Virus record (IMG/VR): IMGVR_UViG_3300045135_001679
Span: 1-34,010 of that record
Direction: 5' to 3' (one strand)
DNA from: a virus
Length of the DNA stretch: 34,010 nucleotides
Shown here one piece after another: positions 9,837 to 33,829 of the stretch. Positions within the stretch are counted from its first letter, which is position 1, and every line of letters begins with the position of its first letter. Below the pieces are notes generated by a model. That model ran no database searches, was not told the DNA's origin, and saw only the letters and a program-made list of their open reading frames with translations. A program made the position numbers and the translations under genes.

Positions 9837-11287
9837 TTTCTATTCACCTTAAATCTCTTGCTTCGATTATCTGCGGGGTTATTACCCAACAATTCAACAC
9901 CAAATCTTATCGTACCTTTCTTGCTGGCTGATCGACCAATATTCTGTGGTATCGTTTTCTTAAATTTAGAATTCAAAAGACCGTTTTGAACTAGATACGA
10001 AGTAAACGTCTCGTTGTTTCTATTTACAGGGCTCCGAATTTTCGATCGAATCTCGTGAATGTCGGGATCGAAGTTAAACAACTCTTCGTAATCATCAGAC
10101 TTGAGTATCTTGTCTTTGAGTTTCGGATCAATCGCTACATTACGCACACCATACGAACTCGTTGACAACATTAGTTCGACAATAGGTGGTGCAGGTAATG
10201 GTGCAGATTGTGTTATCTGAGGATACGGCATAACTCCTGGAGTTGGCTCAGGTGTTGATACAGTTGTCTTCTTCTCTTTGTTGGCGATCAATGCTTTACC
10301 GGCACCTTTCGCATACTCTGCTGTTGTACATGTCATCGAGTAGTCTGCATGAAACGCTTCAGTAGCACGACCAACAAGAGCACCATAGAATGTCGAGACG
10401 TTTGTTTTCTCACCAGGAAGACCACCGTATGTTTTGCCGTAGTAGTCAATTGCGGGTCCACCAATCACACCTTTGTGACCAATGATACCTAAATGTCGAG
10501 CAGTGATACTTGCTGTAGGTGCCGCCGCTACCCATTCTTCAACTGCTGTCGTAATCAGTTTGCCGCCTGTTGTGATTTCAATATCATCTTCGACGAAATG
10601 CTTTGCTGTACCTTTGATGATCCAGTTCGCATCTTCGAGAACAGTTGTCGTTGCCATACCCACGACTTGCTCACCACGAGCGCCTCGAATCGTATAGTTC
10701 TGATCACGGTTTACTGTTTTGGTGTGTCGTCCTTTGATCTCTTCGTCTTTATCTCCTGCGACACGTAGATTATAATTCCCACCAACATCAACGTTGAAAT
10801 CGCCAGAAACAGTGAGATTGAGATTGCCTTTGTAAACAAGATTACCTTCTCCTTCGACAATTACTGTCTCATCGCCAGAAACTACCTCAATCTTTTGTCG
10901 TTGTGATGAAATAACAACACTGCCGTCTGCACGTAGTTCCATGCCAGCGCCAGTGCGATGCTTGATTAATATACGTTCACCACCGGGGGTGTCATCTATT
11001 TCAACAACATGACCCGATGGTGTTTCCGAAACTTGGTTGTGTGGATATTGAGAAGGCTTTTGCTCAGGCAAATCAAAGTTGACACCGAACTCACTTCCGC
11101 CTAAAGTAAGACTGTTGATCTTTGCACCCATCGCCGCTTTGTTGATGCTCGTGCCAAAGAAGTAATCACGCTTGGGATATTCACCAGTCGCATCAGCAAA
11201 ACCGTCGGCGGGTACACCTTCAGTTTCTTCTTGACCTTGAGAGATTATAAGATCACGAAACTTTAAATTGTCTATACTATTAGTCAT
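9833..11287 (-). CDS. 5: Baseplate hub needle, gp5 C-terminal beta-helix protein
   Basis: This 484-residue protein corresponds to the C-terminal part of T4 gp5. Near residue 30 it has DATGEYPKRDYFF, matching the DPTGQYPRR linker after the OB fold in T4 gp5. It then has YPHNQVSETPSGHVVEIDDT (residues 80-100) and GGERILIKH, matching the T4 segment before the needle. Residues about 130-240 contain repeats such as GNLNLTVSGDFNVDVGGNYN, the octapeptide-like pattern of the triple beta-helix. After the helix comes a Pro-rich stretch and a basic C-terminus that T4 gp5 lacks. It has no OB fold and no lysozyme domain: these functions lie in the two upstream genes. It is translationally coupled to the amidase gene by a four-base overlap. 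Confidence 0.88.
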   Translation of the reverse strand: MTNSIDNLKFRDLIISQGQEETEGVPADGFADATGEYPKRDYFFGTSINKAAMGAKINSLTLGGSEFGVNFDLPEQKPSQYPHNQVSETPSGHVVEIDDTPGGERILIKHRTGAGMELRADGSVVISSQRQKIEVVSGDETVIVEGEGNLVYKGNLNLTVSGDFNVDVGGNYNLRVAGDKDEEIKGRHTKTVNRDQNYTIRGARGEQVVGMATTTVLEDANWIIKGTAKHFVEDDIEITTGGKLITTAVEEWVAAAPTASITARHLGIIGHKGVIGGPAIDYYGKTYGGLPGEKTNVSTFYGALVGRATEAFHADYSMTCTTAEYAKGAGKALIANKEKKTTVSTPEPTPGVMPYPQITQSAPLPAPPIVELMLSTSSYGVRNVAIDPKLKDKILKSDDYEELFNFDPDIHEIRSKIRSPVNRNNETFTSYLVQNGLLNSKFKKTIPQNIGRSASKKGTIRFGVELLGNNPADNRSKRFKVNRK

Positions 11288-13131
11288 TTTCCAAACCTTG
11301 TTTTAACATAATCAGGTACATCAAATCCTGGATCGATATTTTCACCTGTGTCATCTATATCATTGTGACCGAGAATTGAAATACCTGGATACACTCGATA
11401 TATTGCACGACAGAAGTGGTCGAATGTATTCAACTGTGCTCGTGTAAGAGATTGAGCAGATAGAAAGTTCTCGCTGTTTGGTGTTCCTGTTGGTACATTA
11501 ATGCCGCCGATAAAAACAACACCCAAAGACTTCTCATCGAATGATAGTGGCGATGCATGTTCACCTTGTATGTTGACTGGTCGACCACGTTGTAATGATC
11601 CGTCTCGACGTATTACATAGTGATAACCAATGCCATCTAGACCCGCTTCAATATGAATCGCATTGATCTCTTCTGAGCCGATATTTTTATTAGTATGTGT
11701 CTCTGACCAATGAACAATGACCTTGTCAACCTCACGTGAGATAAATTGTATCTCGGCTTGCAGTTCTTCCACAGACGAAACATAAGGAAAGACAGGATCA
11801 TTTTGACCTTTCTGCCATTGTTCTTGATATGATCCTATTTCATACGGATCGGGAAACACCTGCTGAGAAACAGGAGGTCGAGTCGAATTGAAGATAGTGG
11901 TGTCAATAGATTTGAGAAATGCTTTGATTACATTATAGTCTTTCTTGGTCAAGTTGTACAGTAATTTAACTGCTTCACTCTCTTCTGCTTTATCGCCTTG
12001 AGACAGATTGATAACACGATTGACTTCTGCATCTGTTATAAATTTTGGTGATACAAAGTTTCGAATCTGACCTTGGACATCTGAGAGAGTCTCGGCACTA
12101 ATACCTTGAACCACGCCAACTTCAGAATTCTTGGCAACACGAGTTGTCACTATCGATTCGTAGTTACTCACTTCTGTAGAGAATCTACTTCGGCGATCTG
12201 CTTGAGTTTGAACAGACTCGATCACTTGATCAGGGTCTTTGCCGCCTGAAAGATTTTCCACATCGGCTTTTGCGGCCTCAAGATTCTGCTTGACTTCATT
12301 TTCTGGCTTGATTAGAACATCTAAGTCAAAGCCAACGTTTGTGCTCAGATTATCAATCATTGCATTGAATTCACCAAGATCTGTTGGACCACTAGATGTT
12401 ACAGTACCATATGTGTATACTAATTCTCCAAGTCCATCGCTGTCTATGTTAGTAATCTTGTTAACAGTTTTGTTGATATCACCACCTGCAAGTATTCCAG
12501 GTAAAACTTTATCAATGAGATCGTCAGTAACTGCCTTGAGTCCGTCTTTCGCCAGATTCTTTAAAGCGTCTGCTCCGCCGAATGCGCCGATCTTACCTTC
12601 GACTAATTCTTTTCCTGCATTCAACAATCCTTCAGGAGAAGCATCTGTGATGATCTTCTGTAAACCTCCAGGTTCAACACCAAGACCTGTAATCTGAGAA
12701 AGAACAGATGCGATTGCCTCTTCGCCTGTAGTGTCTGTTGCTAATGAAGATGCAATAGGAAGAACAACGCCGTTCTCATCAGGCTCACCGAATTGTATTT
12801 CTACTTTTGCACCGAACTTTGATGTTAAGCCAGATAATGCATTGTTGACCATATCGGTCGCCATGTTCTCTAGGCTAGCGGTGTTATTACTGAGTAAACC
12901 TTCAACGGTCTTCTTGGCGTCTTTCAGTTCACCCTTGAAAGCATCGACCTGCTGTGTTAGACTTTCGATACCACCTTGAACTTGACCTGCTATCTGACCT
13001 GCAATGCTCTCGCCTGCATTTGTAAACGCCTGCTTTACTTCTTCTGCGGTCGATTCGATCTTTTCGGTTGATATCGATTTAGAAGCATTCTTTACCTGAG
13101 TTTTTAATTGTTCTAGTTGTGTTTCAGCCAC
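11284..13131 (-). CDS. Baseplate-associated N-acetylmuramoyl-L-alanine amidase with long helical N-terminus
   Basis: A 615-residue protein. Residues 1-100 are coiled-coil-like (Glu, Lys, Gln, Ala rich). Residues 100-460 are unassigned. Residues about 468-615 form a T7-lysozyme/AmpD-type amidase_2 domain. Visible motifs are VIVHWSETHTN with zinc ligand His474, GYHYVIRRDG (Tyr503-Gly511), GEHASPLSF (His525), SLGVVFIGGI, LGHNDI with His589, and NIDPGF with Asp600 as third zinc ligand. The Lys that precedes the third ligand in T7 lysozyme and AmpD (K-x-C/D) is Asn598 here. The family cleaves the bond between MurNAc and L-Ala in peptidoglycan. Its position between the two gp5 pieces suggests a virion-borne wall-opening enzyme that supplements or replaces the T4 gp5 lysozyme. 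It overlaps both neighbours. Confidence 0.85.
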   Translation of the reverse strand: MAETQLEQLKTQVKNASKSISTEKIESTAEEVKQAFTNAGESIAGQIAGQVQGGIESLTQQVDAFKGELKDAKKTVEGLLSNNTASLENMATDMVNNALSGLTSKFGAKVEIQFGEPDENGVVLPIASSLATDTTGEEAIASVLSQITGLGVEPGGLQKIITDASPEGLLNAGKELVEGKIGAFGGADALKNLAKDGLKAVTDDLIDKVLPGILAGGDINKTVNKITNIDSDGLGELVYTYGTVTSSGPTDLGEFNAMIDNLSTNVGFDLDVLIKPENEVKQNLEAAKADVENLSGGKDPDQVIESVQTQADRRSRFSTEVSNYESIVTTRVAKNSEVGVVQGISAETLSDVQGQIRNFVSPKFITDAEVNRVINLSQGDKAEESEAVKLLYNLTKKDYNVIKAFLKSIDTTIFNSTRPPVSQQVFPDPYEIGSYQEQWQKGQNDPVFPYVSSVEELQAEIQFISREVDKVIVHWSETHTNKNIGSEEINAIHIEAGLDGIGYHYVIRRDGSLQRGRPVNIQGEHASPLSFDEKSLGVVFIGGINVPTGTPNSENFLSAQSLTRAQLNTFDHFCRAIYRVYPGISILGHNDIDDTGENIDPGFDVPDYVKTRFGK

Positions 13132-21570: not shown

Positions 21571-22470
21571 TCAGTCTTCAGCCGCTAACTTAGCAAAGTA
21601 AGACATTGTGTCTTCTTCGGTGTCTTCAACAACACTGCTCGCAGGTGCAGGAGCTGGCGCTGTTCTAACGGGAGCAGGTTCTTCTACTCGCTCCATAACG
21701 ACTTGCTGTTTAGTTGACTGAGGTGCAGTCTCACCAAGAACAAGCATTAATCGAGCTTTTAACTCATCATAAGACTTATACTGTTTAGGGTCAGTGAACT
21801 CATTCAGATCGTGCAACTGTTCATAGATTTGTTCCAGTTCATCTTCATCACCGCCCAATAGCGTAGACTGAGATGCAAACTCGGACTTATCATAGTTACG
21901 ATAACCCGCAACATTCTGAATCTTAAGTTTAAATGAAGCGCCTTCCCAGAAGTCAAACGGATTGATTGGATCTTCATCAGCAAACTGAGGTTGCATTACG
22001 TCCATGATCTTGTCATAGATTTTCTTACCATAAGTGAACATGAACACTTTACCCTCGTTCTGAGGATTTGCAGGATCAGATTCAACGTAGATGTTCGAAA
22101 CATAGTGCAATCGACGTTTCTGTTTACGTGCAGTTTCTTTATCTTCTTCTCGACCCGAGTTCCACAAGATTGAGTTGTGTTCGGAAACAGGGTCTTGTTG
22201 ACCAATTGAAGTCAATGAGCGTTCGATGTACCACTGACCAGTTGGACCTTTGAAGCCATGATCCCAGTATCGTACCCAAGGTAGTTCGTTACCTTCAGGT
22301 GCGGGTAGAAAACGAATCACAGCATAACCATTGCCTGCTTTATCAACAGTTGGCTTCCACTGGCGTTCGTCGACGTAGGATTTGGTATCTTTGGGAGCAT
22401 CTGTTGCCTGTGCGGCAGAGACTAGATCAGAGATAGAGTTACGGTTGCGTTTTAGATTTGCAAAAGACAT
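21571..22470 (-). CDS. 32: Single-stranded DNA-binding protein gp32
   Basis: A 299-residue gp32 homologue, close to T4 gp32 (301). The N-terminus has the basic cooperativity motif LKRNRNSISDL. The OB core has YAVIRFLPAPEGNELPWVRY, DHGFKGPTGQWYIERSLTS and DPANPQNEGKVFMFTYGKKI, then FDFWEGASFKLKIQNVAGYR, all matching gp32. The C-terminal tail is Pro/Ala-rich and then acidic (VVEDTEEDTMSYFAKLAAED), the part that in T4 contacts replication proteins. There is no Cys in the whole protein, so the T4 zinc site (His and three Cys) is absent. It is transcribed alone, from a late-type box with an AU-rich leader, and ends at a strong terminator. T4 gp32 represses its own translation by binding its leader. 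Confidence 0.95.
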   Translation of the reverse strand: MSFANLKRNRNSISDLVSAAQATDAPKDTKSYVDERQWKPTVDKAGNGYAVIRFLPAPEGNELPWVRYWDHGFKGPTGQWYIERSLTSIGQQDPVSEHNSILWNSGREEDKETARKQKRRLHYVSNIYVESDPANPQNEGKVFMFTYGKKIYDKIMDVMQPQFADEDPINPFDFWEGASFKLKIQNVAGYRNYDKSEFASQSTLLGGDEDELEQIYEQLHDLNEFTDPKQYKSYDELKARLMLVLGETAPQSTKQQVVMERVEEPAPVRTAPAPAPASSVVEDTEEDTMSYFAKLAAED

Positions 22471-22559: not shown

Positions 22560-22922
22560 CTATTCATTGTCAACCTTCTGCCATACAGAATCGGCTGTAA
22601 ATTCATAAGAGCCTAGATACTTTTTGTCCCATTCGTTTGGACCAATGAGACTCAAAATAATTTTGCCATCGATATCGTAGAGGTGATACACCACGCCAAC
22701 ACGAGGGACAAAATTATATTCTGCTTTATAGATTAGTTCGTTCTCCATTGCTAAATTAACCAACTCCTGATATTCACGATTGAGAAGTTCCAATCTGTTT
22801 TCAAAATAATTTCTTGCAAGCGAACCCCGTTCACTCTTAAACAGATCAGTGTCTGGTAGAGTGATAGCCGGAACGCTTGAGTTCAGACCATACGGCAGTA
22901 ACGCTTGCGGATTCTTGTTCAT
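22560..22922 (-). CDS. DUF2452-type protein
   Basis: A 120-residue protein. It has the DUF2452-like pattern: LEL-x-N-x-EYQELVNLAM helix, YNFVPRVGVVYHLYDIDGK, then LSLIGPNEWDKKYLGSYEFT and a final Trp (DSVWQKV). The family is found in bacteria and in T4-like marine phages and has no known activity. There is no membrane segment. It is the last gene of the operon that carries gp33, and its ATG overlaps the gp33 stop by one base. Function unknown. Confidence 0.75.
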   Translation of the reverse strand: MNKNPQALLPYGLNSSVPAITLPDTDLFKSERGSLARNYFENRLELLNREYQELVNLAMENELIYKAEYNFVPRVGVVYHLYDIDGKIILSLIGPNEWDKKYLGSYEFTADSVWQKVDNE

Positions 22923-23176
22923 TATAAAGGTAATTCATTACCACGAGGCAGATAGTTTAAACGTCTGGCTTCTGCTTCGAGTTTCTCCTTGATAGGGTCA
23001 CCAATAAATTTCTTTACATCTTCTATTTCTAGATTATTTTCTTCACAAAGATAAACAATCGCATCAATGTATGACAACGCATTTTCTTTTACCGCAGTCT
23101 CTATCATACGATTAAATCGTATCTTTGTCAACATCACGTCGCCAAGTTTCATTGTATTTCCATATCCTTTGTCCAT
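22922..23176 (-). CDS. 33: Late transcription accessory protein gp33
   Basis: An 84-residue protein that fits the short gp33 of marine T4-like phages: FNRMIETAVKENALSYIDAI, VYLCEENNLEIEDVKKFI, then LKx-type EKLEAEARRLNYLPRGNELP. In T4, gp33 bridges RNA polymerase beta-flap and the sliding clamp gp45 and works with sigma gp55 at TATAAATA promoters, which occur in this window. Two starts are possible. ATG 23176 has AGGA five bases upstream. ATG 23152 would make an ATGA overlap with the upstream stop and a 76-residue product. I kept the longer form because of its better ribosome site. Confidence 0.82.
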   Translation of the reverse strand: MDKGYGNTMKLGDVMLTKIRFNRMIETAVKENALSYIDAIVYLCEENNLEIEDVKKFIGDPIKEKLEAEARRLNYLPRGNELPL

Positions 23177-24841: not shown

Positions 24842-24987
24842 TATGTATCTTTACGTCTCTCAAGATTGAATTTGTAGATATCAGCAAGAAGACCTTTTTC
24901 TTCATGTGATAACTCATTATAGTTTCTTTTTGTCTTCTTGTCAACCTTACCGTATTTTCGCATCAACTTGGCTTTCTTGCTGTTCAT
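24841..24987 (-). CDS. Small basic protein of 48 residues
   Basis: The 142-base gap between two larger genes is fully used by a 48-codon frame: ATG at 24987, TAA at 24841. The product is Lys-rich and helical (MNSKKAKLMRKYGKVDKKTK at the start, LERRKDT at the end). Its ATG overlaps the stop of the oxygenase gene (ATGA), and its stop overlaps the next ATG (TAATG). This double overlap on the same strand is good evidence for a real gene. Function unknown. Confidence 0.8.
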   Translation of the reverse strand: MNSKKAKLMRKYGKVDKKTKRNYNELSHEEKGLLADIYKFNLERRKDT

Positions 24988-25766
24988 ACTAATTTATTCA
25001 CCTTCTTGAATCCAAATATTTTGATTGAGTGTAGTTCGTTTACCGATCGGTGTGTCTTGTCATGGATATCATGCTTGTCTGTTTTGTAATCATGATAGTA
25101 CTTACCATCTTCGGTGTACATTGCAAAATTGATAATACGTCTTAGATGCGTTGTGGGATATCTCACTGTCGCACGATGCCATGAGTTCGTCAGATTAGGC
25201 CAAATGACAAACACGTTGTCTTCGTATGGTATTTCTTTAATCAGACGATCTTTACCGTCGGTGATTTGAAAGTGACCGTCGTCGGAAGTATCGCCTTTCT
25301 CTCTAAAGTATAACAGACCCGATACCAACTTGTCACCATTATCCATGTGCCAGCCGATAATATTTTTTGCCTCAGTACATGCATTGTATGCACCATACGA
25401 GTACATACTCTTGTCTTGTAGCATAGAATCGGAAAAGTTTGGATACTCTTTTTCAAAATATGGACGAAATGCTTCGTCAAGCATGTCCCGAAATCCTTCG
25501 CTATTTTGCAATGACGTTAATGTTTTCATAACAACATCATTGAACTTACCGGAGAATTTATTTGAAGGTAGTGCAGTTGTCCATCGACTCTCACTCTCAC
25601 GACCCACAAATACACCATAGCGTTCGAGATTTCGAAACTGTCTCATGGTGTCTTTGAGTTCTGCATTGTTACTAAGGTAATCAAGCATCTCTTTGTCTTG
25701 GACAAAGTCACGTATGATGATGTGTGGAAATGGTGTCTCGTGTAATTCGTAATTTAAATTAAACAT
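24984..25766 (-). CDS. 2-oxoglutarate/Fe(II)-dependent oxygenase
   Basis: A 260-residue protein with the double-stranded beta-helix signature. The start, PFPHIIIRDFVQDKEMLDYL, is typical of prolyl-hydroxylase-like phage oxygenases. Iron ligands are His140 and Asp142 (GWHMDNGDKLVSGLLYF) and His197 (SWHRATVRYP); an Arg about ten residues on (Arg209 or Arg210) would bind 2-oxoglutarate. The family uses O2 and 2-oxoglutarate to hydroxylate or demethylate a substrate, which here is unknown. T4-like marine phages often carry several such genes. It overlaps the bilin reductase by eight bases, so the two are co-translated, but a shared pathway is not implied by sequence. Confidence 0.85.
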   Translation of the reverse strand: MFNLNYELHETPFPHIIIRDFVQDKEMLDYLSNNAELKDTMRQFRNLERYGVFVGRESESRWTTALPSNKFSGKFNDVVMKTLTSLQNSEGFRDMLDEAFRPYFEKEYPNFSDSMLQDKSMYSYGAYNACTEAKNIIGWHMDNGDKLVSGLLYFREKGDTSDDGHFQITDGKDRLIKEIPYEDNVFVIWPNLTNSWHRATVRYPTTHLRRIINFAMYTEDGKYYHDYKTDKHDIHDKTHRSVNELHSIKIFGFKKVNKLV

Positions 25767-26385
25767 ATGGAAACTGTATCTTTTTGAATTTGTTTACATA
25801 TTCTTCATCAAGACCGAGCGATATCATTACGTTTTTACTGTTCTCGTTCATCAACTGGTTTTTGCAGTATTTAGCCTTACCTTCACGATGCGCTTCAGAA
25901 GATGCTGGTCGATGATCAAACCAATCTTTGAGATGCTGAATACCAAATGATATCAAGCGATCGACCTCTTCTTCGTCTCGAACATTACCTGCCGCAATCA
26001 TTGAATCACTAAAGATCTCCTTTGCCCAATCAGGCAATGGTCGAGTTCGCTCAGGTACGAATGGTGCGACTTGCTCTCGAAACTTTTGACACAAAGGGTG
26101 ATTCACATCGTCTGTAGGCGACATGTCATGAAAACATCCTGTAACTTTATTCTTGCCTACTACAACATCAAAGCCATAGATCGGCATTGGCACATATCCT
26201 TTTGAGTATGTGTTGACATGCATCATCCACATACCCTTCGAAGGTCTCATATCAATGATCGATATATGTCCCATCTCTAGTACATCTGACGACCAGAAAT
26301 AGTTGCTGTGACATTTATCCCATTCATTCACACTGTAGTGACGTTTACCATTGGTATCAAATATCTTTATGAGTTCTTCACTCAT
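25759..26385 (-). CDS. pcyX: Ferredoxin-dependent bilin reductase, PcyA/PcyX type
   Basis: A 208-residue protein (numbering from ATG 26385) that aligns with PcyA along its length. Matches include a central block HVNTYSKGYVPMPIYGFDVV, then HDMSPT, then LPDWAKEIFSDSMI, and C-terminal AHREGKAKYCKNQ. His56 and Asp73 are 17 residues apart, the same spacing as catalytic His88 and Asp105 of Synechocystis PcyA. At the PcyA Glu76 position there is Ile44 (next residue Asp45), so the Glu is absent. PcyA reduces biliverdin to phycocyanobilin; PcyX, a PcyA relative from marine phage DNA, makes phycoerythrobilin. The lack of Glu76 and the phage context favour PcyX. Electrons would come from ferredoxin; none is encoded here. 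It starts ten bases after the heme oxygenase stop. An upstream GTG (26409) is a less likely start. Confidence 0.85.
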   Translation of the reverse strand: MSEELIKIFDTNGKRHYSVNEWDKCHSNYFWSSDVLEMGHISIIDMRPSKGMWMMHVNTYSKGYVPMPIYGFDVVVGKNKVTGCFHDMSPTDDVNHPLCQKFREQVAPFVPERTRPLPDWAKEIFSDSMIAAGNVRDEEEVDRLISFGIQHLKDWFDHRPASSEAHREGKAKYCKNQLMNENSKNVMISLGLDEEYVNKFKKIQFPYV

Positions 26386-26395
26386 ATCGATAAAC

Positions 26396-26914
26396 TTATC
26401 CCACAACACGAAAGTACCTTCCTAACTCTTTACTGATATTGATGTGCCAGTGAAATCCGTTGCGAACTTCGTTCACAAACTCTTCGGTGTCTTCACACAC
26501 CTGTTCACGTATATATTCTCGTTTCTCTTCGATCTCTTCAAACTCATACATTGAAGCAGACGTAGGGTATCGCTTCTTCATGATCTGACCACCGTACATA
26601 AATCCCATGTAGTTCAGATAGATGTGAGCGCCTATGTTTTCACAATGATGTTGTAGATAATACGAATAATCAATCGATGATCCTAGAACAAAATCCGAAG
26701 GACCGCCTAATGCTTTCAGATCCTTTTCTATTGCTTTGAGTCTTCGAAACTCTGGTGGTACATGCGGATCAAGTGATGTGAATATGTGCTTGTTTGATGT
26801 GAGATAGGCTCGACGTTCTTCGTCAGTCTGTTCGCCCTTGAACATCTTAACGTTGAATGGCAGTGCTTCTAACTCGGTGTGAAGATCGTTTGTGGCTTCT
26901 CGAATAAAACTCAT
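26396..26914 (-). CDS. ho1: Heme oxygenase (HO1 type)
   Basis: A 172-residue heme oxygenase, shorter than the cyanobacterial enzymes (about 240) because the C-terminal tail is missing. The proximal heme ligand is His12 in REATNDLHTELEALPFN. The distal helix with its flexible glycines is YMGFMYGGQIMKKRYP (Gly104, Gly108, Gly109). IDYSYYLQHHCENIGAHIYL and EDTEEFVNEVRNGFHWHINI are also family patterns. The enzyme opens heme to biliverdin, CO and iron, using ferredoxin electrons. It directly precedes the bilin reductase, so together they form a two-step heme-to-phycobilin route. Its ATG overlaps the stop of the DruA-like gene (ATGA). Confidence 0.92.
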   Translation of the reverse strand: MSFIREATNDLHTELEALPFNVKMFKGEQTDEERRAYLTSNKHIFTSLDPHVPPEFRRLKAIEKDLKALGGPSDFVLGSSIDYSYYLQHHCENIGAHIYLNYMGFMYGGQIMKKRYPTSASMYEFEEIEEKREYIREQVCEDTEEFVNEVRNGFHWHINISKELGRYFRVVG

Positions 26915-28242
26915 CGTCCTACCTCATTTAAATATTTTTCTTTAGTTTCTTCCCACGTCAAATAGATCAAATCATCGTAGAACAATGTCTCGTCAGACAC
27001 ACGATCGTTTTCTACCAAATTTCTAATACGTTTCGATGCGTATTTAGTTTTCCACAATTCAACTAAGGTCTCGTCCGAAGTATCTATAGACTTTATGAGT
27101 TTTGTCTCATCTATTTCACCACGTAAAAACTCTTTGGTGTTGTCATACAAAGGAGCAAAGTATATACCTCGACCGTGTTCACATGATATCAAGTGCTTAG
27201 GTATTTTCAATTTCGAATATGTGAAGTGAAACGAACGATTACGGTGATCACGCTTGTATGGCATACCCGAAGCCTTCACTGCCTCATACCATTCAAAGTA
27301 TTTGTATGTGTGATGCTTTGCCATCCACTTCAGTATTTTAGCTTGGGTGTCTTTGTGTGTTTCGTATGCCATTGAGCCTGAACTAAAGCCCATTTTCTTC
27401 CAGTGTTTAAGACGATCATACTGAGAAAGACCACCTTGCTTTGTCTTACCGTATAGAGATGTTGTGGTAACACCAGTCAGAACATCACCATATTTTTCTT
27501 TCCACAGGTTCTGCACTGTGTCAGACAAACACAGTAATGCAAGCAATTTGCCTCCGACGTAGTTGTAGCCTAACGGTTGCGTCGGTACAATTGTACTGCC
27601 AATAGCAGTGTAATTGATCATATTGCCTTGGGTTTTCTTTTCACGTTCCCACCCTATCCAATTGTCACGGGGTGTTAAGTCGAGAAAGTCCGAAGATATG
27701 CACATTACACCAAGATATTTACCGGTAACTTCATCGATGACCTGAAAGTTTAAATTGCGACCAATATTAGGATTGTTCTTCATGGTCGATGTGAAATTTC
27801 GTACTAGATTCCACTCAGCCGCTAACGTATCGGTACGCTTAGTCTTCTCAGTAACAATACTACCATCAACACCCACACGAGTAATTTCTTGAGTATCGTC
27901 GGTATACACAAGTTTAGGCTTCAGTTTCCGATAATCATCAGGATGTTCAGGACGCCAAATGTTAGACTTAGCGGCATCGATCGCTTTCTTCTGATTAGGA
28001 TCTTTGAGTTGAACCTCTTCGCCGAACAAGGTAGAGACGGTTTCAGTAGGATATTTACGATGCACCTCAAGCCATTTCTGGTAAAGTGTATATTCACCAA
28101 CGGTCATCTGCGAAACAAATTCTAGGTCTTTCATGATTGTTTCACGCATCTCTTCATCAGAAATGTCTTCGATGGATTCTATATCAGCGTTTGCCTGAAA
28201 CAATTCCCATTGTTCTTCAATGCTTACTTCACTTGTCTTCAT
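26911..28242 (-). CDS. DruA-like (DUF4338) protein
   Basis: Start set at ATG 28242 with GGAA just upstream (443 residues); the in-frame ATG at 28320 would overlap the nuclease gene by 92 bases. The N-terminal 140 residues are acidic and helical. Residues about 165-295 resemble the DUF4338/DruA domain: KYLGVMCISSDFLDLTPRDN, WIGWE, then GSTIVPTQPLGYNYVGGKLL, ALLCLSD, W-x-x-KYGDVLTGVTTTSLYG. In bacteria DruA is the common component of Druantia defence systems, and the fold is discussed as acyltransferase (Mom)-like. A phage copy could be a DNA-modifying or counter-defence protein; this is inference. It lies between a nuclease and the heme oxygenase gene. Confidence 0.6.
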   Translation of the reverse strand: MKTSEVSIEEQWELFQANADIESIEDISDEEMRETIMKDLEFVSQMTVGEYTLYQKWLEVHRKYPTETVSTLFGEEVQLKDPNQKKAIDAAKSNIWRPEHPDDYRKLKPKLVYTDDTQEITRVGVDGSIVTEKTKRTDTLAAEWNLVRNFTSTMKNNPNIGRNLNFQVIDEVTGKYLGVMCISSDFLDLTPRDNWIGWEREKKTQGNMINYTAIGSTIVPTQPLGYNYVGGKLLALLCLSDTVQNLWKEKYGDVLTGVTTTSLYGKTKQGGLSQYDRLKHWKKMGFSSGSMAYETHKDTQAKILKWMAKHHTYKYFEWYEAVKASGMPYKRDHRNRSFHFTYSKLKIPKHLISCEHGRGIYFAPLYDNTKEFLRGEIDETKLIKSIDTSDETLVELWKTKYASKRIRNLVENDRVSDETLFYDDLIYLTWEETKEKYLNEVGR

Positions 28243-28891
28243 ATTTCCGAATTGTCTCCAACAATCTGTCTGTCCAATTATCACGATGCTCAACGAATAT
28301 TTGAGGCTGTTCGTCATCAACGGCGATCAGTGTCACGAGTTGAGTGATAGGTATACCTGTTCGTTCTTCAAACATTATAGCATATGCGGCTTCTTGCATA
28401 AAGTAGTTTTCGATATATTTTTTCTGCTTGATCTTACGAGAAGTCTTAAAGTCGATGATCGAAATCTTGCCGTCAAACTCTGCTACACAGTCAACTCGTC
28501 CCGCTACACGCAAGTGGTGAGAGAAGAGAGGCACTTCTTGAGCATAGATCTTGCCGATACGAGTATCTAGGATTTCTTTAAGTGGCAGAAAATTATCGAT
28601 AATATTCAGAGCATACTTTTCTTTGTAGTTCTCAACGTTGTTCAGATAATCTTCGACAATAGCATGTACTGCTGTACCACGTGTGGAGGCACGGTGGGAA
28701 ATTCGGTTCGCTTCTTCTTCACCAACACGTTTACGCCATGCTTTGATGGCGTCTTCGGAGAGAATAGAAAGAACTGTCGTTATAGAAGGATACTTGCGAC
28801 CGTCAGGTGTAGAATAGAGTCGACCTGACTCTGAAGTATCCGCATTTAAATCATCATAACCAAGATCAACACCAACATGTTCAAACATCAT
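28229..28891 (-). CDS. RecB/Cas4-like PD-(D/E)xK exonuclease
   Basis: A 220-residue protein with the full RecB-family nuclease pattern: RGTAVHAIVEDYL (His76), IYAQEVPLFSHHL (Glu119), VAGRVDCVAEFDG (Asp134), ISIIDFKTSRK (Asp147, Lys149) and FMQEAAYAIMFEE (Gln166-x-x-x-Tyr170). These residues bind Mg2+ and DNA ends in RecB, Cas4 and MGME1-type exonucleases. A single-domain form like this is common in T4-like marine phages, where it probably acts in recombination or host DNA breakdown. It overlaps the DruA-like gene by 14 bases and the upstream gene by four. Confidence 0.88.
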   Translation of the reverse strand: MMFEHVGVDLGYDDLNADTSESGRLYSTPDGRKYPSITTVLSILSEDAIKAWRKRVGEEEANRISHRASTRGTAVHAIVEDYLNNVENYKEKYALNIIDNFLPLKEILDTRIGKIYAQEVPLFSHHLRVAGRVDCVAEFDGKISIIDFKTSRKIKQKKYIENYFMQEAAYAIMFEERTGIPITQLVTLIAVDDEQPQIFVEHRDNWTDRLLETIRKYEDK

Positions 28892-29637
28892 TTAGCCTTT
28901 CGTTTTATAGCCTCTTGTGCACGTCTTTGCTTTCGATTTAGAGGCTGTGTATCAATGGGCACGTGCATACCACGACCATCACTAATGTCACTAACATCTT
29001 GAGTGGTCTGTGCCTTTGTCAGTTTATCATTATACACCACCACTTCCATATTGTCAAGTTTCGGTATCTTTAAATTATCATGATTGTGATGAAGCACAAA
29101 CTTAGTGTTGGGAAACTCTCGAAAGATATCACGCCAGATAGGACGCCAGTTGTTTAACAGTCTGAAGTTGTTGGTGGTTGTACGATCACTGGATAGAATC
29201 AGATCAGTCACACTACGCATGTTGAAATCAAACAGTGTGTCGAATCCGTACATGTGAATCTCATCTGCTTTCTTTTGGTTGGCGGCATAGTGAACTGCCA
29301 TATGACCACAGTTAAAATTCGTCGCATTACCTGCATACGCTGGTACGTGCGTGTAGAACTCTTTGACACGATTAGCATACTTGAGATAGAAAGCAGATCG
29401 CTCATACATCCAGATACGAGGTCGAGTACCTAAAACCCACTCGTACTGATCCAGTTTGATCGAACCCTCTGTCAATGCCATCATCATCTTAAAGTCGACC
29501 ATGCATGTTGCATACACGTCTTGAGGTGCCATTTCAAATGGAGGCATATTGCAAAGGAGATTGTATCCTTCTCGCTTCTCTCTTTTATAGTAAACGGCTT
29601 TATCGCCGTTGCCAATTACATGAAATACTTTACTCAT
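28888..29637 (-). CDS. Putative sugar-transfer protein (GT29/GT42 or DUF115-like)
   Basis: A 249-residue protein with a start like Rossmann-type transferases, MSKVFHVIGNGDKAVYYKRE. The middle has NFNCGHMAVHYAANQKKADE and IHMYGFDTLFDFNM, then a Trp/Arg-rich segment and KFVLHHNHD. The pattern GNG near the start, a GxxAxxxA helix and a YGFD loop recalls sialyltransferase-like or DUF115 proteins, but the match is weak. The C-terminus is basic (LNRKQRRAQEAIKRK). Next to three glycosyltransferase-like genes, so a glycan role is likely by context. Overlaps the GT8-like gene by eight bases. Confidence 0.5.
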   Translation of the reverse strand: MSKVFHVIGNGDKAVYYKREKREGYNLLCNMPPFEMAPQDVYATCMVDFKMMMALTEGSIKLDQYEWVLGTRPRIWMYERSAFYLKYANRVKEFYTHVPAYAGNATNFNCGHMAVHYAANQKKADEIHMYGFDTLFDFNMRSVTDLILSSDRTTTNNFRLLNNWRPIWRDIFREFPNTKFVLHHNHDNLKIPKLDNMEVVVYNDKLTKAQTTQDVSDISDGRGMHVPIDTQPLNRKQRRAQEAIKRKAK

Positions 29638-30286
29638 TATACATTAATTTCCGTATCTGATCTTTACCTGCTTGACCTGTCCAATGCATACACAGCTTGT
29701 TGGGATTATCTTGTCCATCTATTAGCTGTATACGCAACCAGTTGTATATATTAGGTACGTCAGCGATGTGCATCAATCTCATCATAGGATTGATTCTCAC
29801 TATTTCATGTAGTATTTCTTGATCGCCAAGTCTTGGATTATTTAAGCAACTCTGCATCCACTTTTTTAGAATCGGTGGCTTACCACGAATCGCTACGACA
29901 CCTGAGTTGTGCCATTTCTCACCTCGTCGTGCAGACCATGGCTTGTCTTCGACCATGGCGAGTTTATCGTTCTCAACGTATTTGAAAATACCAGATAGAT
30001 CACCTAGTACCTGAATGTCGGTATCGATCCAACACGTTTCTTCGTAAGGTGAATGATACAGTGCCGCAGGCTTATAGAACCATCCACCTACTGATTGCTT
30101 GGGTAAGTCTATGATTTCTATCTTCTCGACCTGATATAACCAAGACCGTGTTTCTTGGGTGATACCAAAATCACAAAACACCAATGGTGTATCATTGTGC
30201 TTCTTATAGTTCTTGATGAACCACTTGAGCATCCATTCGGTATTAGAATCACATCCTGTTATAAAGGCTCTATTCGACTTTGACAA
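29630..30286 (-). CDS. Glycosyltransferase, GT8-like
   Basis: A 218-residue protein with a GT-A pattern: SNRAFITGCDSNTEWMLKWF at the start, a metal-binding DxD motif at Asp88-Thr-Asp90 in CWIDTDIQVLGDLSG, then KWHNSGVVAIRGKPP (the acceptor-loop HNSG) and CMHWTGQAGK near the C-terminus, as in GT8 enzymes. No signal or membrane segment. It should move a sugar from a nucleotide-sugar to an unknown acceptor. It overlaps the GT25-like gene by 17 bases, as part of one operon. Confidence 0.7.
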   Translation of the reverse strand: MSKSNRAFITGCDSNTEWMLKWFIKNYKKHNDTPLVFCDFGITQETRSWLYQVEKIEIIDLPKQSVGGWFYKPAALYHSPYEETCWIDTDIQVLGDLSGIFKYVENDKLAMVEDKPWSARRGEKWHNSGVVAIRGKPPILKKWMQSCLNNPRLGDQEILHEIVRINPMMRLMHIADVPNIYNWLRIQLIDGQDNPNKLCMHWTGQAGKDQIRKLMYNE

Positions 30287-30932
30287 AATCGTAACTCCCT
30301 TCTTTGTAGTTGTGCTTGGCGTAACAGCCCGTCTTGTTTTGAATCGTAGTGAACGTATCTTTAGCGACCACAGGCCAAGGGTAATATTCCTCTAGCCAAG
30401 GAAAAAGGTCTACGTTCAAATAAACATCAGTCGCTTGAGCATAGAATGGTGCCTGTTCAACTAAAACTTTGGCACCTGCTGGCTTAAGTTTGTATGCGTG
30501 TGCGCCTGGAAAGTATTTCTTACTCGTCAATGGTATGACGCCCATCTGAAACGGCTGAACAAACTTACCATAGCTCGGTGCACCAAGACTGAGACAACCT
30601 TTGTAAGGTGCGTACTGTGGTATCTGATCAAGAACAACAGCGTCATGCTCAAAGATCACAAACTCTTCTTTACCCTTAGCACACATATCCCATAGTGTAT
30701 AGTGAGACATGAATGCCGAGATCACATTGTCAGGTCGTGAGCCAACATCATGCTTGAATCCTTCAAGGTTGATTTGTCGTTTCTTGGCTAACGCTTTCGG
30801 ATTCTTCTTAGGCGTGATAGCATCAAACATCTCGACGTGAAGATTAGATTTGTCGTTGGCACTTTTGATACAACGCTCAGAACACTTAACAGATCCATCT
30901 AAATCGGTTATCGTAATAACAAATGCTTTCAT
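30270..30932 (-). CDS. Glycosyltransferase, GT25-like
   Basis: A 220-residue protein of the GT25 (LPS galactosyltransferase) type. It has the short N-terminal ITITDLDGSVKCSERC strand, a helix with SAFMSHYTLWDMCAKGKEEF, the metal-site motif EHD at 95-97 (FVIFEHDAVV) and the later PGAHAYKLKPAGAKVLVEQA, a GT25 pattern. Probably adds a sugar to a glycan such as host LPS or a virion glycan. Its stop lies in the GT8-like gene, and the next gene upstream ends one base before its ATG. Confidence 0.72.
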   Translation of the reverse strand: MKAFVITITDLDGSVKCSERCIKSANDKSNLHVEMFDAITPKKNPKALAKKRQINLEGFKHDVGSRPDNVISAFMSHYTLWDMCAKGKEEFVIFEHDAVVLDQIPQYAPYKGCLSLGAPSYGKFVQPFQMGVIPLTSKKYFPGAHAYKLKPAGAKVLVEQAPFYAQATDVYLNVDLFPWLEEYYPWPVVAKDTFTTIQNKTGCYAKHNYKEGSYDFVKVE

Positions 30933-30933
30933 T

Positions 30934-31701
30934 CTATTCGCTCGGTTTTGTAAAGTAATCGCCTTTATGATGCGTACAATACTTAGATAACGGCACGTTC
31001 TTCCAACTGTTCCATGACATCTTCAGTTTGGGCGGGAGTAATTTGTGTGACTCAATGCCTTGTGCTTCCAAGTATTGTATACAATGTTGAAACGCATGGC
31101 AATCCGTCCAGCCTGTTTTAATATCAAATAGTTTCAAATCATCGTACAAGGTTCTCATCTCTTGCCAATACAAATCGTTGGCTGAATGATGAGTGTCAAA
31201 GCCTATGTAACCCGTGTCGGGAAAAAGATAAGAACCCGTCTCACGATTTATATAAGAAGCAAACTTACCTTCTTCAAACAACGTGTAAAGAAAATCATCA
31301 GGCATCTTTTTATGGAATATCACATCAGAGTCTATGTAACACAGATAGCGATTGGTCAGTGGTAAAGAATTTAATATGGCATAGACTTTGTAACAGAAAC
31401 GATGCGCATCCCACAGCCACATATCACTTTTAGTATATGACATGTTTTCGCTTTTCTTATTAGATCGTCTTCGCTGTACCTTAGTGGCAAGTAGATCTTT
31501 TGACTTCTCCTGAAAAGCCTTTACTTCAGTGAGATCAAACGGTACATAAGTGATCTTGTCAGTATTCTCAGGTAGATTATCACCCTCATACTGAACGATG
31601 ATATTGCAGTTGTCGGGCAAACATTTCTCAGCCGCCTTCACATTATCGAATGCGTATTGATAACGTTCGGGGAATGTAAAGACGGCAGTAAAATCCATCA
31701 T
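30934..31701 (-). CDS. Putative glycosyltransferase with DSD motif
   Basis: Start set at ATG 31701, where ATGA overlaps the gmd stop; the ATG at 31770 would run 73 bases into gmd. The 255-residue product has a GT-A type DxD motif, Asp124-Ser-Asp126 in YLCYIDSDVIFHKK, and later SYLFPDTGYIGFDTHHSAND and TGWTDCHAFQHCIQYLEAQG. Family not recognised with certainty. Its place between gmd and GT25-like points to use of an activated sugar made by the two upstream enzymes. Confidence 0.6.
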   Translation of the reverse strand: MMDFTAVFTFPERYQYAFDNVKAAEKCLPDNCNIIVQYEGDNLPENTDKITYVPFDLTEVKAFQEKSKDLLATKVQRRRSNKKSENMSYTKSDMWLWDAHRFCYKVYAILNSLPLTNRYLCYIDSDVIFHKKMPDDFLYTLFEEGKFASYINRETGSYLFPDTGYIGFDTHHSANDLYWQEMRTLYDDLKLFDIKTGWTDCHAFQHCIQYLEAQGIESHKLLPPKLKMSWNSWKNVPLSKYCTHHKGDYFTKPSE

Positions 31702-32666
31702 GACAACCTTTGTAGGTCTGCTTGTACCATAATCGAAGCCAGTTCTTTCAGTTCCATCTTGGCTTCCCATCCGAGTTTCTCTTTTGCTTTCGAAGCATCA
31801 CCTAACAGAACATGGAGTTCGGCAGGACGGAAAAACTTAGGGTCTTGTTTAACATACTGTGACCAATCGGCTATTCCAACTTCGGCAAAGGCAAGATCAA
31901 GGAAGTCCCGAATGCTGTAGCTCTTTCCTGTAGCGAGAACATAATCGTCAGGCTCTTCTTGTTGAAGCATCATCCACATACCTTCAACAAACTCTCCTGC
32001 AAATCCCCAATCACGTTTGGCTTCCAGATTACCCAACACAATCTCGTCACTTAAGCCAAGTTTGATTCGAGCAACACCATCACTAATCTTCCGAGTCACA
32101 AACTCAATGCCCCGAGTCGGACTTTCATGATTGAAGAGAATACCGCCACAAGCGAACATGTCATAACTTTCACGATAGTTGACGACCATATTATGAGCAA
32201 ACGCTTTGGCAACACCGTATGGAGAACGAGGAATAAAAGGTGTCAACTCAGTCTTAGGCTCTGCACCGCCTGAGTTGCCGTACATCTCAGAAGTACCTGC
32301 TTGATACAGTTTGGTATGAGGACTAAACTGTCGGATTGCTTCGAGAACATACAACACACCCATACCATTCACAGCCGAAACATAGACAGGCATCTGCCAT
32401 GACAAACCCACAAAACTTTGGGCGGCAAGATTGTAGAACTCGTCAGGTTGAATATCTTTGACGATATTCTGAATACTACACTGATCTGTTAAATCAGCAC
32501 TAACTAACTCAATCTGATCTTTGATACCAAGCCATTCGAGATTTTCGAATGACTGATTGATTCGACGTGAAATAACGCCATAGACTTTGTAGCCCTTACC
32601 AAGAAGAAACTTGGCAAGGTAACCACCGTCTTGACCGGTAACACCAGTAACTATTGCAGTCTTCAT
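31698..32666 (-). CDS. gmd: GDP-mannose 4,6-dehydratase
   Basis: A 322-residue short-chain dehydrogenase/reductase. The NAD(P) site is GVTGQDGGYLAKFL (Gly8, Gly11, Gly14). FYNLAAQSFVGLSW and TSEMYG (Thr125-Ser-Glu) are Gmd-specific, and the catalytic Tyr150-x3-Lys154 lies in SPYGVAKA. NHESPTRGIEFVTRKI and GNLEAKRDWGFAGEFVEGMW complete the match. It converts GDP-mannose to GDP-4-keto-6-deoxymannose, the precursor of fucose, rhamnose, perosamine and colitose. The next gene upstream, a ColD-like enzyme, fits the last route. It overlaps both neighbours by four bases. Confidence 0.95.
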   Translation of the reverse strand: MKTAIVTGVTGQDGGYLAKFLLGKGYKVYGVISRRINQSFENLEWLGIKDQIELVSADLTDQCSIQNIVKDIQPDEFYNLAAQSFVGLSWQMPVYVSAVNGMGVLYVLEAIRQFSPHTKLYQAGTSEMYGNSGGAEPKTELTPFIPRSPYGVAKAFAHNMVVNYRESYDMFACGGILFNHESPTRGIEFVTRKISDGVARIKLGLSDEIVLGNLEAKRDWGFAGEFVEGMWMMLQQEEPDDYVLATGKSYSIRDFLDLAFAEVGIADWSQYVKQDPKFFRPAELHVLLGDASKAKEKLGWEAKMELKELASIMVQADLQRLS

Positions 32667-33829
32667 AACTGATTAAGAACTCCTTCAAGTAATTCAAAGT
32701 GCTCATCGGTCAATAGATGATTGTTGCCGATGTACACTCCATGTTCATGCGCCAGATCTGCATTTGCTTGATCTGTAGCAACGGGTACATTATCTAGTCG
32801 CTTTAAAAATGGGTGTCTCATCAGATTACCACCGATAACAGGACGAGTCTCAATACCCGCTTCGTCTAACAATTTCTTGACTCGATCCGCCACTGCCTTT
32901 TCTTTGGCAACAAAGGGGAAACAGAAACTGCTGTTGTTTCTACCCGCTTCAGGAACATAGAACTTGAATGGATCTAATAACTTGATATATCGATCAAAGT
33001 TCTTTCGACGTGCTTCGATGAAACTATCGAGACGCTTTAACTGCTCTAGACCAAGAACAGCATGTACCTCATCGTTTCGACAGTTTAATCCATCAGTGAC
33101 AAAAAGAAACTGAGGATTGATATCAGGATTCTGAGCGGCATATTCTTCAAATCGAGTTGACTCACGTGCCATACCGTGACTACGCTTCATTCTCATCAAA
33201 TCATACAGATCGTCGTCATTACAACAAACCATACCACCTTCGATCGTTGTCATGTGATGACCAAAGTAGAAACTAAATGTAGAACCAAGAGATTTTGCTC
33301 CTCGCTTAACTCCGTTCGCATCTTCGACACCATGGCTCTCACAGACATCTTCGATGAGTATTGCATTAGGGAAAAGATATGCAATATCATCCACCTTCGC
33401 ATTCAATCCTAGAAGGTGAGTGATGAAGACCATCTTGATTTCTTTTCGTTCGTCTTCACTCATCTGCTCTTGAATTTTTATCAGATCAAAGCTGTAGTCG
33501 TCGAAGTTGATATCGGCAAAGACCGGTGTCAAACCAAGTTGCATAATTGGCGCAACGTTGGTCATCCATGTGCAGAGAGGAACAAGGACTTTGTCACCAT
33601 TTTGTAGATTGTATTTCTCTTTGACAGCCGCTACCAAAAGAAGGTTAGCTGTACTGCCCGACTGAACAAACAGAGAGTGTTTACAACCTAACCACTCACT
33701 CCATGCTTCTTCAAACTCCTTTACCTTCGGTCCGTTTGTCAGACGGTCTGACGACAGTAGAAAGTCTGCCATTGCCGCTTTGTCTGAAGGTGTGATTATG
33801 TCATCCATTAATTTCCATTTATAACTCAT
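32663..33829 (-). CDS. ColD-like GDP-4-keto-6-deoxymannose 3-dehydratase (DegT/AHBA family)
   Basis: A 388-residue PLP fold-type I protein, the same length as E. coli ColD. The usual aminotransferase Lys motif is replaced by FGHHMTTIEGGMV (His191-His192), the pattern of ColD and related PLP 3-dehydratases, where His stands in for Lys. VQSGSTANLLLVAAV, PLCTWMTNVAPIMQLGL and EDVCESHG are family motifs, and the C-terminal IETRPVIGGNLMRHP and HGVYIGNNHL match ColD closely. The enzyme would remove the 3-hydroxyl of GDP-4-keto-6-deoxymannose, the Gmd product, toward a 3,6-dideoxysugar such as colitose. The ColC step is not in the window. No iron-sulfur cysteines of the RfbH type were seen. Confidence 0.85.
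   Translation of the reverse strand: MSYKWKLMDDIITPSDKAAMADFLLSSDRLTNGPKVKEFEEAWSEWLGCKHSLFVQSGSTANLLLVAAVKEKYNLQNGDKVLVPLCTWMTNVAPIMQLGLTPVFADINFDDYSFDLIKIQEQMSEDERKEIKMVFITHLLGLNAKVDDIAYLFPNAILIEDVCESHGVEDANGVKRGAKSLGSTFSFYFGHHMTTIEGGMVCCNDDDLYDLMRMKRSHGMARESTRFEEYAAQNPDINPQFLFVTDGLNCRNDEVHAVLGLEQLKRLDSFIEARRKNFDRYIKLLDPFKFYVPEAGRNNSSFCFPFVAKEKAVADRVKKLLDEAGIETRPVIGGNLMRHPFLKRLDNVPVATDQANADLAHEHGVYIGNNHLLTDEHFELLEGVLNQL

What the first reader, a model, noticed from the sequence alone, without database searches (positions are those of the whole stretch)
25759..26914. Phage heme oxygenase and PcyX-type bilin reductase pair: a heme-to-phycobilin pathway in a T4-like phage
The two adjacent genes encode every enzyme needed to turn heme into a phycobilin. 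The reductase is PcyA-like, not PebS-like, so it belongs to the type (PcyX) described from marine viral DNA of non-cyanophage origin and shown to make phycoerythrobilin. Here it is embedded in a full T4-like core, next to gp33. What a heterotroph-infecting phage would do with a pink bilin is unknown.
Basis: partly seen in the sequence, partly recalled or inferred. Interest (0 to 1): 0.9.

Follow-up and report, generated by a model that had tools for sequence, protein, structure and literature searches.

The report
Odd heme-to-bilin gene pair in phage
A T4-like aquatic phage carries two adjacent genes related to enzymes that open heme and reduce the product to a coloured bilin; such pairs are already known from marine phages, but in this phage lineage both proteins lack residues that their characterised relatives use for catalysis, so the pigment they make cannot be taken as known.

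Summary
[quoted passage not shown] Both are intact, overlap by 14 bases, match Pfam, and give confident models with HO and PcyA/PcyX folds. Phage hemO-pcyX pairs are already published, including the isolated pelagiphage Mosig, so the headline is not new. The FDBR's best match is PcyX, and a tree rejects placing it with cyanobacterial PcyA. But it belongs to a separate, fully supported clade ("S-type", 34 other contigs), and placing it with the characterised PcyX clade is also rejected. All 18 S-type representatives have serine where PcyX has catalytic Asp55 and PcyA has Glu76; the His88 and Asp105 equivalents are kept. The partner HO has lost three residues of the distal hydrogen-bond network (human Tyr58, Arg136, Asp140), and all 25 distinct S-type HOs in the tree share the Arg and Asp losses; the heme ligand His is kept. 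Selection is purifying. gp33 is 2.6 kb away, and the host is unknown. Verdict: new variant of a known kind; probably active, product unestablished.

The parts
26396..26914 (-). Heme oxygenase (HO-1-type fold, 172 aa), 'S-type'
   Evidence: Pfam PF01126 E 2.5e-11; AlphaFold pLDDT 95.5, Foldseek to HmuO/HO-1. Ribosome-binding-like 'gaggtagg' upstream; ATGA overlap with the upstream ORF.
26879..26881 (-). HO His12 codon = human HO-1 His25 (proximal heme ligand), kept
   Evidence: Alignment
26780..26782 (-). HO Phe45 codon = human Tyr58, replaced
   Evidence: F/M in 32 of 32 S- and E-type HOs, Tyr in 28 of 28 others
26612..26614 (-). HO Asn101 codon = human Arg136, replaced
   Evidence: Asn in 32 of 32 S- and E-type HOs; Arg in 26 of 28 others
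26600..26602 (-). HO Phe105 codon = human Asp140, replaced
   Evidence: M/F/L/V in all 26 S-type rows (the window counted once); Asp or Glu in all 24 D- and K-type rows
25759..26409 (-). Ferredoxin-dependent bilin reductase (216 aa), PcyX-related, 'S-type'
   Evidence: Pfam PF05996 E 1.3e-7; PDB 5owg PcyX E 1e-39; tree; model pLDDT 93.2
26260..26262 (-). FDBR Ser50 codon (TCG) at the PcyX Asp55 / PcyA Glu76 position
   Evidence: Ser 18/18 S-type, Asp 8/8 PcyX, Lys 15/15 K-type, Glu in all PcyA
26218..26220 (-). FDBR His64 codon = PcyA His88, kept
26167..26169 (-). FDBR Asp81 codon = PcyA Asp105 / PcyX Asp86, kept
24984..25766 (-). 2OG-Fe(II) oxygenase-like ORF, start overlaps the FDBR stop
   Evidence: Pfam PF13640 E 1e-4, below cut-off; homologues in only a minority of S-type contigs
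26911..28320 (-). DruA-domain ORF just upstream; not a conserved neighbour
   Evidence: Pfam PF14236 E 6e-20; homologue in 1 S-type locus
28229..28891 (-). PD-(D/E)XK exonuclease (phrog_298), conserved upstream neighbour
   Evidence: found in 33 S-type loci, 0 D/K/E-type loci
22922..23176 (-). gp33 late-transcription coactivator
   Evidence: phrog_254 E 9e-22
21571..22470 (-). gp32 single-strand DNA-binding protein, used for lineage placement
   Evidence: phrog_224 E 2e-111

Best explanation
The pair is a translationally overlapping hemO-FDBR auxiliary metabolic cassette of the phage hemO-pcyX kind, in a divergent form here called S-type, kept in one lineage of T4-like (Kyanoviridae-like) aquatic phages. 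The HO most likely still binds heme and opens it to biliverdin, using a different distal hydrogen-bond network, as plant HOs do. The reductase then reduces biliverdin with ferredoxin. Because His64 and Asp81 (PcyA His88 and Asp105) are kept but the acid at Asp55/Glu76 is serine, the likeliest product is a bilin reduced on the A-ring without reduction of the 18-vinyl group: phytochromobilin-like, or phycoerythrobilin reached by another route, and not phycocyanobilin. The cassette probably serves the infected cell's heme, iron and redox economy, or supplies a chromophore to a host photoreceptor. Shown: genes, folds, homology, clade, residue changes, purifying selection, conserved locus. Inferred: both activities, the product and the use.
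For: Families and folds. The cassette is intact in S-type loci wherever the contig reaches (the one exception, L045, has its reductase split into two overlapping ORFs). dN/dS is about 0.09-0.10 against the nearest relative for both genes, with dS near saturation. Proximal His25, Glu29 and Gly143-144 are invariant in the HO; His88 and Asp105 equivalents are invariant in the FDBR. Precedents: soybean HO-1 lacks Arg136 and Asp140 and uses another network (PMC7948506). Pre-PcyA enzymes without Glu76 are active and make phytochromobilin, one also PEB via phytochromobilin; Glu76 is needed for 18-vinyl reduction (PMC10151467). The phage CB_2 reductase without Asp55 makes PCB (PMC11480375), so the product appears to follow this residue.
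Against: No S-type enzyme has been assayed. A hydrophobic residue at Asp140 is harsher than the plant His; the D140A mutant of human HO-1 becomes a peroxidase (PMC5623701). Pre-PcyAs also lack His88, so they are imperfect models. No GAF-domain photoreceptor gene was found in the larger contigs with these cassettes, so no use for the pigment is visible in the phage itself.
Confidence: 0.55

Rival explanations
1. The FDBR is a working PcyX that makes phycoerythrobilin via 15,16-dihydrobiliverdin; loss of Asp55 is compensated by another residue such as the invariant Asp53 (PcyX Asp58).
For: Nearest characterised relative is PcyX; Asp53 is Asp in 18/18 S-type and 8/8 D-type sequences; an S+D clade is not rejected (p-AU 0.35).
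Against: The window protein cannot be held in one clade with D-type PcyX alone (p-AU 3e-5); Asp55 is invariant in D-type and absent in all S-type; other invariant differences separate S from D.
Confidence: 0.22
2. The HO-like protein no longer performs canonical heme oxygenation: it acts as a heme-binding protein or peroxidase, and the reductase works on biliverdin from the host or on another tetrapyrrole.
For: Tyr58, Arg136 and Asp140 are all replaced in the S+E HO clade; D140A turns human HO-1 into a peroxidase (PMC5623701).
Against: Soybean HO-1 is an HO that lacks Arg136 and Asp140 (PMC7948506); the heme ligand and other pocket residues are invariant; the gene always sits next to an FDBR where the contig allows. 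The E-type relatives pair the same HO kind with a Glu76 reductase, which suggests biliverdin is still needed.
Confidence: 0.15
3. The main selected output is not pigment but iron release and heme or biliverdin clearance during infection, with the reductase pulling the HO reaction forward.
For: A role in iron supply has been discussed for these cassettes (PMC11480375); no GAF photoreceptor gene in the phage contigs.
Against: No direct evidence; the FDBR would not be needed for iron release alone. This is compatible with the best explanation and differs only in purpose.
Confidence: 0.3
4. The cassette is decaying and inactive.
For: Canonical catalytic residues are absent in both proteins.
Against: Open frames in dozens of divergent contigs, dN/dS about 0.1, and clade-wide fixed replacements rather than random decay.
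Confidence: 0.04

Closest known systems
Phage PcyX (EBK42635, PDB 5owg; and Pelagibacter phage Mosig EXVC030M)
   Same: Best sequence match (E 1e-39), about 36% identity to the Mosig protein over 96% of length, hemO directly upstream, T4-like phage; His88/Asp105 equivalents kept
   Different: Separate clade; Ser instead of Asp55; the window HO found no Mosig match by tblastn at E 0.01; different genome site (exonuclease/gp33 side rather than beside the neck genes)
hemO-pcyA/X-alaS cassettes of aquatic phages (PMC11480375)
   Same: Same two-gene core in T4-like myoviruses
   Different: No 5-ALA synthase found in the S-type contigs searched, though these are fragments
Alphaproteobacterial and cyanobacterial PcyA
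   Same: Same FDBR branch; His88 and Asp105 kept
   Different: Glu76 replaced by Ser; tree rejects a window + cyanobacterial PcyA clade
E-type phage cassette (L087, L088, L201-L211; contigs up to 274 kb)
   Same: Same HO clade, lacking Tyr58/Arg136/Asp140
   Different: Reductase carries Glu at position 76 and branches outside the PcyX group
Plant-type HO-1 (soybean)
   Same: Lacks Arg136 and Asp140 yet is an HO (PMC7948506)
   Different: Has His150 there; the window HO has Phe105 and keeps the ordinary proximal His and Glu29

Membership tests
PcyX (phage phycoerythrobilin synthase) | Sequence kinship to PcyX above all other FDBR classes | tested here: met
   PDB search E 1e-39 vs 3e-12 for PcyA; tree
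PcyX (phage phycoerythrobilin synthase) | Falls in the clade of the characterised PcyX | tested here: not met
   S-type clade 100/100; D-type clade 91/86; window + D-type rejected, p-AU 3e-5. A joint S+D clade is not rejected (p-AU 0.35)
PcyX (phage phycoerythrobilin synthase) | PcyX-specific catalytic Asp55 | tested here: not met
   Ser50 here and in 18/18 S-type representatives
PcyX (phage phycoerythrobilin synthase) | His and Asp at the PcyA His88/Asp105 positions | tested here: met
   His64, Asp81
PcyX (phage phycoerythrobilin synthase) | Adjacent phage heme oxygenase gene | tested here: met
   14-base overlap
PcyX (phage phycoerythrobilin synthase) | Makes PEB from biliverdin | not testable with these tools
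   Needs an enzyme assay
PcyA | Glu76 | tested here: not met
   Ser50
PcyA | Groups with cyanobacterial PcyA | tested here: not met
   p-AU 2e-63
PebS / PebA / PebB | Groups with these in the tree | tested here: not met
   They lie beyond a 100/100 branch
HY2 (plant phytochromobilin synthase) | Groups with HY2 in a tree | not tested
   No HY2 sequence was in the tree; no HY2 chain matched the window protein at E<=1, and HY2's PebB relatives lie far away
Heme oxygenase (HO-1 type) | Pfam family and fold | tested here: met
Heme oxygenase (HO-1 type) | Proximal heme-ligand His25 | tested here: met
   His12, invariant
Heme oxygenase (HO-1 type) | Distal network Tyr58, Arg136, Asp140 | tested here: not met
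   Phe45, Asn101, Phe105
Heme oxygenase (HO-1 type) | Converts heme to biliverdin | not testable with these tools
   Needs an enzyme assay

The most novel reading that the evidence does not exclude
The S-type cassette is a new heme-to-bilin route: an HO with a rebuilt proton network feeding a reductase that lacks the acid at Glu76/Asp55 and makes a bilin other than PEB or PCB (for example phytochromobilin), kept by a distinct lineage of T4-like phages found in dozens of contigs.
Probability: 0.35. Interest if true: 0.7.

Novelty: new variant of a known kind. Interest (0 to 1): 0.5.

Why it matters
Phage bilin reductases have been shown to make PEB (PebS, PcyX) or PCB (CB_2 PcyA), and the PcyX/PcyA difference is thought to follow one active-site position. 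This window shows a phage clade with a third residue (Ser) there, and a related clade with a fourth (Lys); the Ser clade is paired with heme oxygenases that lost the textbook proton network. That gives a natural set (Asp, Ser, Lys, Glu) for testing what sets FDBR product specificity and how an HO works without Asp140, and it bears on the open question of what phages of non-photosynthetic hosts gain from these genes.

Tried and rejected
Membership in cyanobacterial PcyA: rejected by AU test. Membership in PebS/PebA/PebB: rejected by tree. Single-contig error as the cause of Ser50: rejected, since it is fixed across the clade. Host from bacterial records: related reductases found in bacterial MAG contigs (L126, L127, L129, L132, L135, L137, L139) sit in the viral D- and K-type clades in bins of unrelated phyla, which looks like phage contigs in bins and gives no host. 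A first genome-contig scan with the Mosig protein found nothing. Host from core genes: the nearest isolate or complete genome is Phage C48C1 with no host recorded, and no paper on it was found. 5-ALA synthase and [2Fe-2S] ferredoxin were not found in the S-type contigs searched, but these are fragments. TATAAATA late-promoter-like sites (4 vs 1.7 expected) are not clearly above chance and none lies at the cassette. No tRNA or Rfam match in the window. FEBS J 2018 on the PcyX mechanism is not held, so the role of Asp55 rests on PMC11480375. The last part failed on an N base; only the pairs printed before that are used.

Full report
Observation. The window is an IMG/VR virus record of 34,010 bases. 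Two overlapping minus-strand ORFs lie exactly at the stated coordinates: 26396-26914 (172 aa, heme oxygenase, PF01126 E 2.5e-11) and 25759-26409 (216 aa, ferredoxin-dependent bilin reductase, PF05996 E 1.3e-7, over cut-off). Both have ribosome-binding-like stretches, and the HO start overlaps the upstream stop (ATGA). The surroundings are T4-like: gp32, gp33, tail tube, DNA end protector and baseplate genes. gp33 is at 22922-23176, so it is 2.6 kb away rather than adjacent.

Structure. Models built from S-, D-, K- and E-type relatives are confident: FDBR pLDDT 93.2, HO 95.5. Foldseek puts the FDBR with PcyA/PcyX (5owg TM 0.81 by target length) ahead of PebA/PebB/HY2/PebS by E-value, and the HO with HmuO and mammalian HO-1.

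What is already known. PcyX plus hemO cassettes in marine phages, their link to T4-like pelagiphages and to isolate Mosig, and a PCB-making variant in phage CB_2 were published in 2024 (PMC11480375). Mosig's HO-PcyX pair was read here. In IMG/VR, 105 stretches encode a relative of the window reductase, so the family is common.

What is different. An IQ-TREE tree of 74 FDBRs puts phage proteins into a D-type clade (Mosig, EBK42635; support 91/86), a K-type clade (100/100) and an S-type clade with the window (100/100). The residue at the PcyX Asp55/PcyA Glu76 position follows the clades without exception: Asp 8/8, Lys 15/15, Ser 18/18, and Glu in all cyanobacterial, alphaproteobacterial and E-type sequences; His88 and Asp105 equivalents are invariant in all of these groups. 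The PDB entry for the PcyA E76Q mutant confirms the register. AU tests reject window + cyanobacterial PcyA (p 2e-63) and window + D-type alone (p 3e-5), but not S + D together (p 0.35). The S-type proteins also carry other fixed differences, such as an acidic residue in 17 of 18 where PcyA and PcyX have Arg (window position 45).

The partner HO. Human HO-1's distal network includes Tyr58, Arg136 and Asp140 (PMC5623701). In the window these are Phe45, Asn101 and Phe105. Across the tree set, all 32 S- and E-type HOs have Phe/Met at the first and Asn at the second position, and all S-type HOs have a hydrophobic residue at the third; D- and K-type HOs keep Tyr, Arg and Asp/Glu. The S+E HOs form one group at 100/100, so the change is shared with the E-type cassettes of large phages (contigs to 274 kb), whose reductases keep Glu. 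His25 and Glu29 equivalents are invariant. Soybean HO-1 lacks both Arg136 and Asp140 and uses another network (PMC7948506), so activity is plausible; but D140A in human HO-1 gives a peroxidase (PMC5623701), so it is not assured.

Selection and context. Against the nearest relative, dN/dS is 0.096 (FDBR) and 0.092 (HO), with dS near saturation, so these are rough values. In S-type contigs the pair sits between a phrog_298 exonuclease and the phrog_624/gp33/gp32 genes, a site not seen for D-, K- or E-type loci. gp32 and gp6 place S-type contigs together (window vs other S-type: gp32 67-87%, gp6 50-82%), then Phage C48C1 (host not recorded), then methylophage Melnitz, cyanophages and Mosig. The host therefore stays open.

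Mechanism. Glu76 is required for 18-vinyl reduction in PcyA, and pre-PcyAs without it make phytochromobilin, or PEB via phytochromobilin (PMC10151467). With His88 and Asp105 kept and position 76 serine, I infer A-ring reduction without 18-vinyl reduction. Steps shown: gene pair, folds, clade, residue changes, constraint. Steps inferred: heme opening, reduction, product, purpose. No GAF photoreceptor gene was found in the larger contigs; a [2Fe-2S] ferredoxin was found in Mosig only.

Verdict. The gene pair is confirmed, its general kind is already known, and its assignment as a PEB-making PcyX is not established. It is a new variant, of moderate interest.

Noticed in passing
L048-L082 (K-type loci, without the D-type L057 and L059), e.g. 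L067:9363-10064, L078:8942-9643: A second phage FDBR clade has Lys at the Asp55/Glu76 position in every member aligned; two of its larger contigs also carry 5-ALA synthase.
   Followed up: partly
L201-L211: Large phage contigs (up to 274 kb) carry HO plus an FDBR with Glu at position 76, whose HO shares the altered distal network of the window HO.
   Followed up: partly
L001 record MT647606, 2758-3000: Pelagiphage Mosig encodes a [2Fe-2S] ferredoxin-like protein, a possible electron donor for its own HO and PcyX.
   Followed up: no
window 26911-28320: DruA-domain protein (PF14236) directly upstream of the HO; nearly absent from related contigs, so likely a recent insertion.
   Followed up: partly
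window 11284-13131: 615 aa ORF with an amidase-like domain only in its C-terminal quarter, among the baseplate hub genes, beside separate ORFs matching the gp5 N-terminal and C-terminal parts.
   Followed up: no
window 29630-33829: Glycosyltransferase-like ORFs, a GDP-mannose-dehydratase-like protein and a DegT aminotransferase: probably a phage sugar-modification cluster.
   Followed up: no
L126, L127, L129, L132, L135, L137, L139: Bacterial MAG contigs carry D- or K-type phage cassettes, probably phage contigs binned into MAGs.
   Followed up: partly
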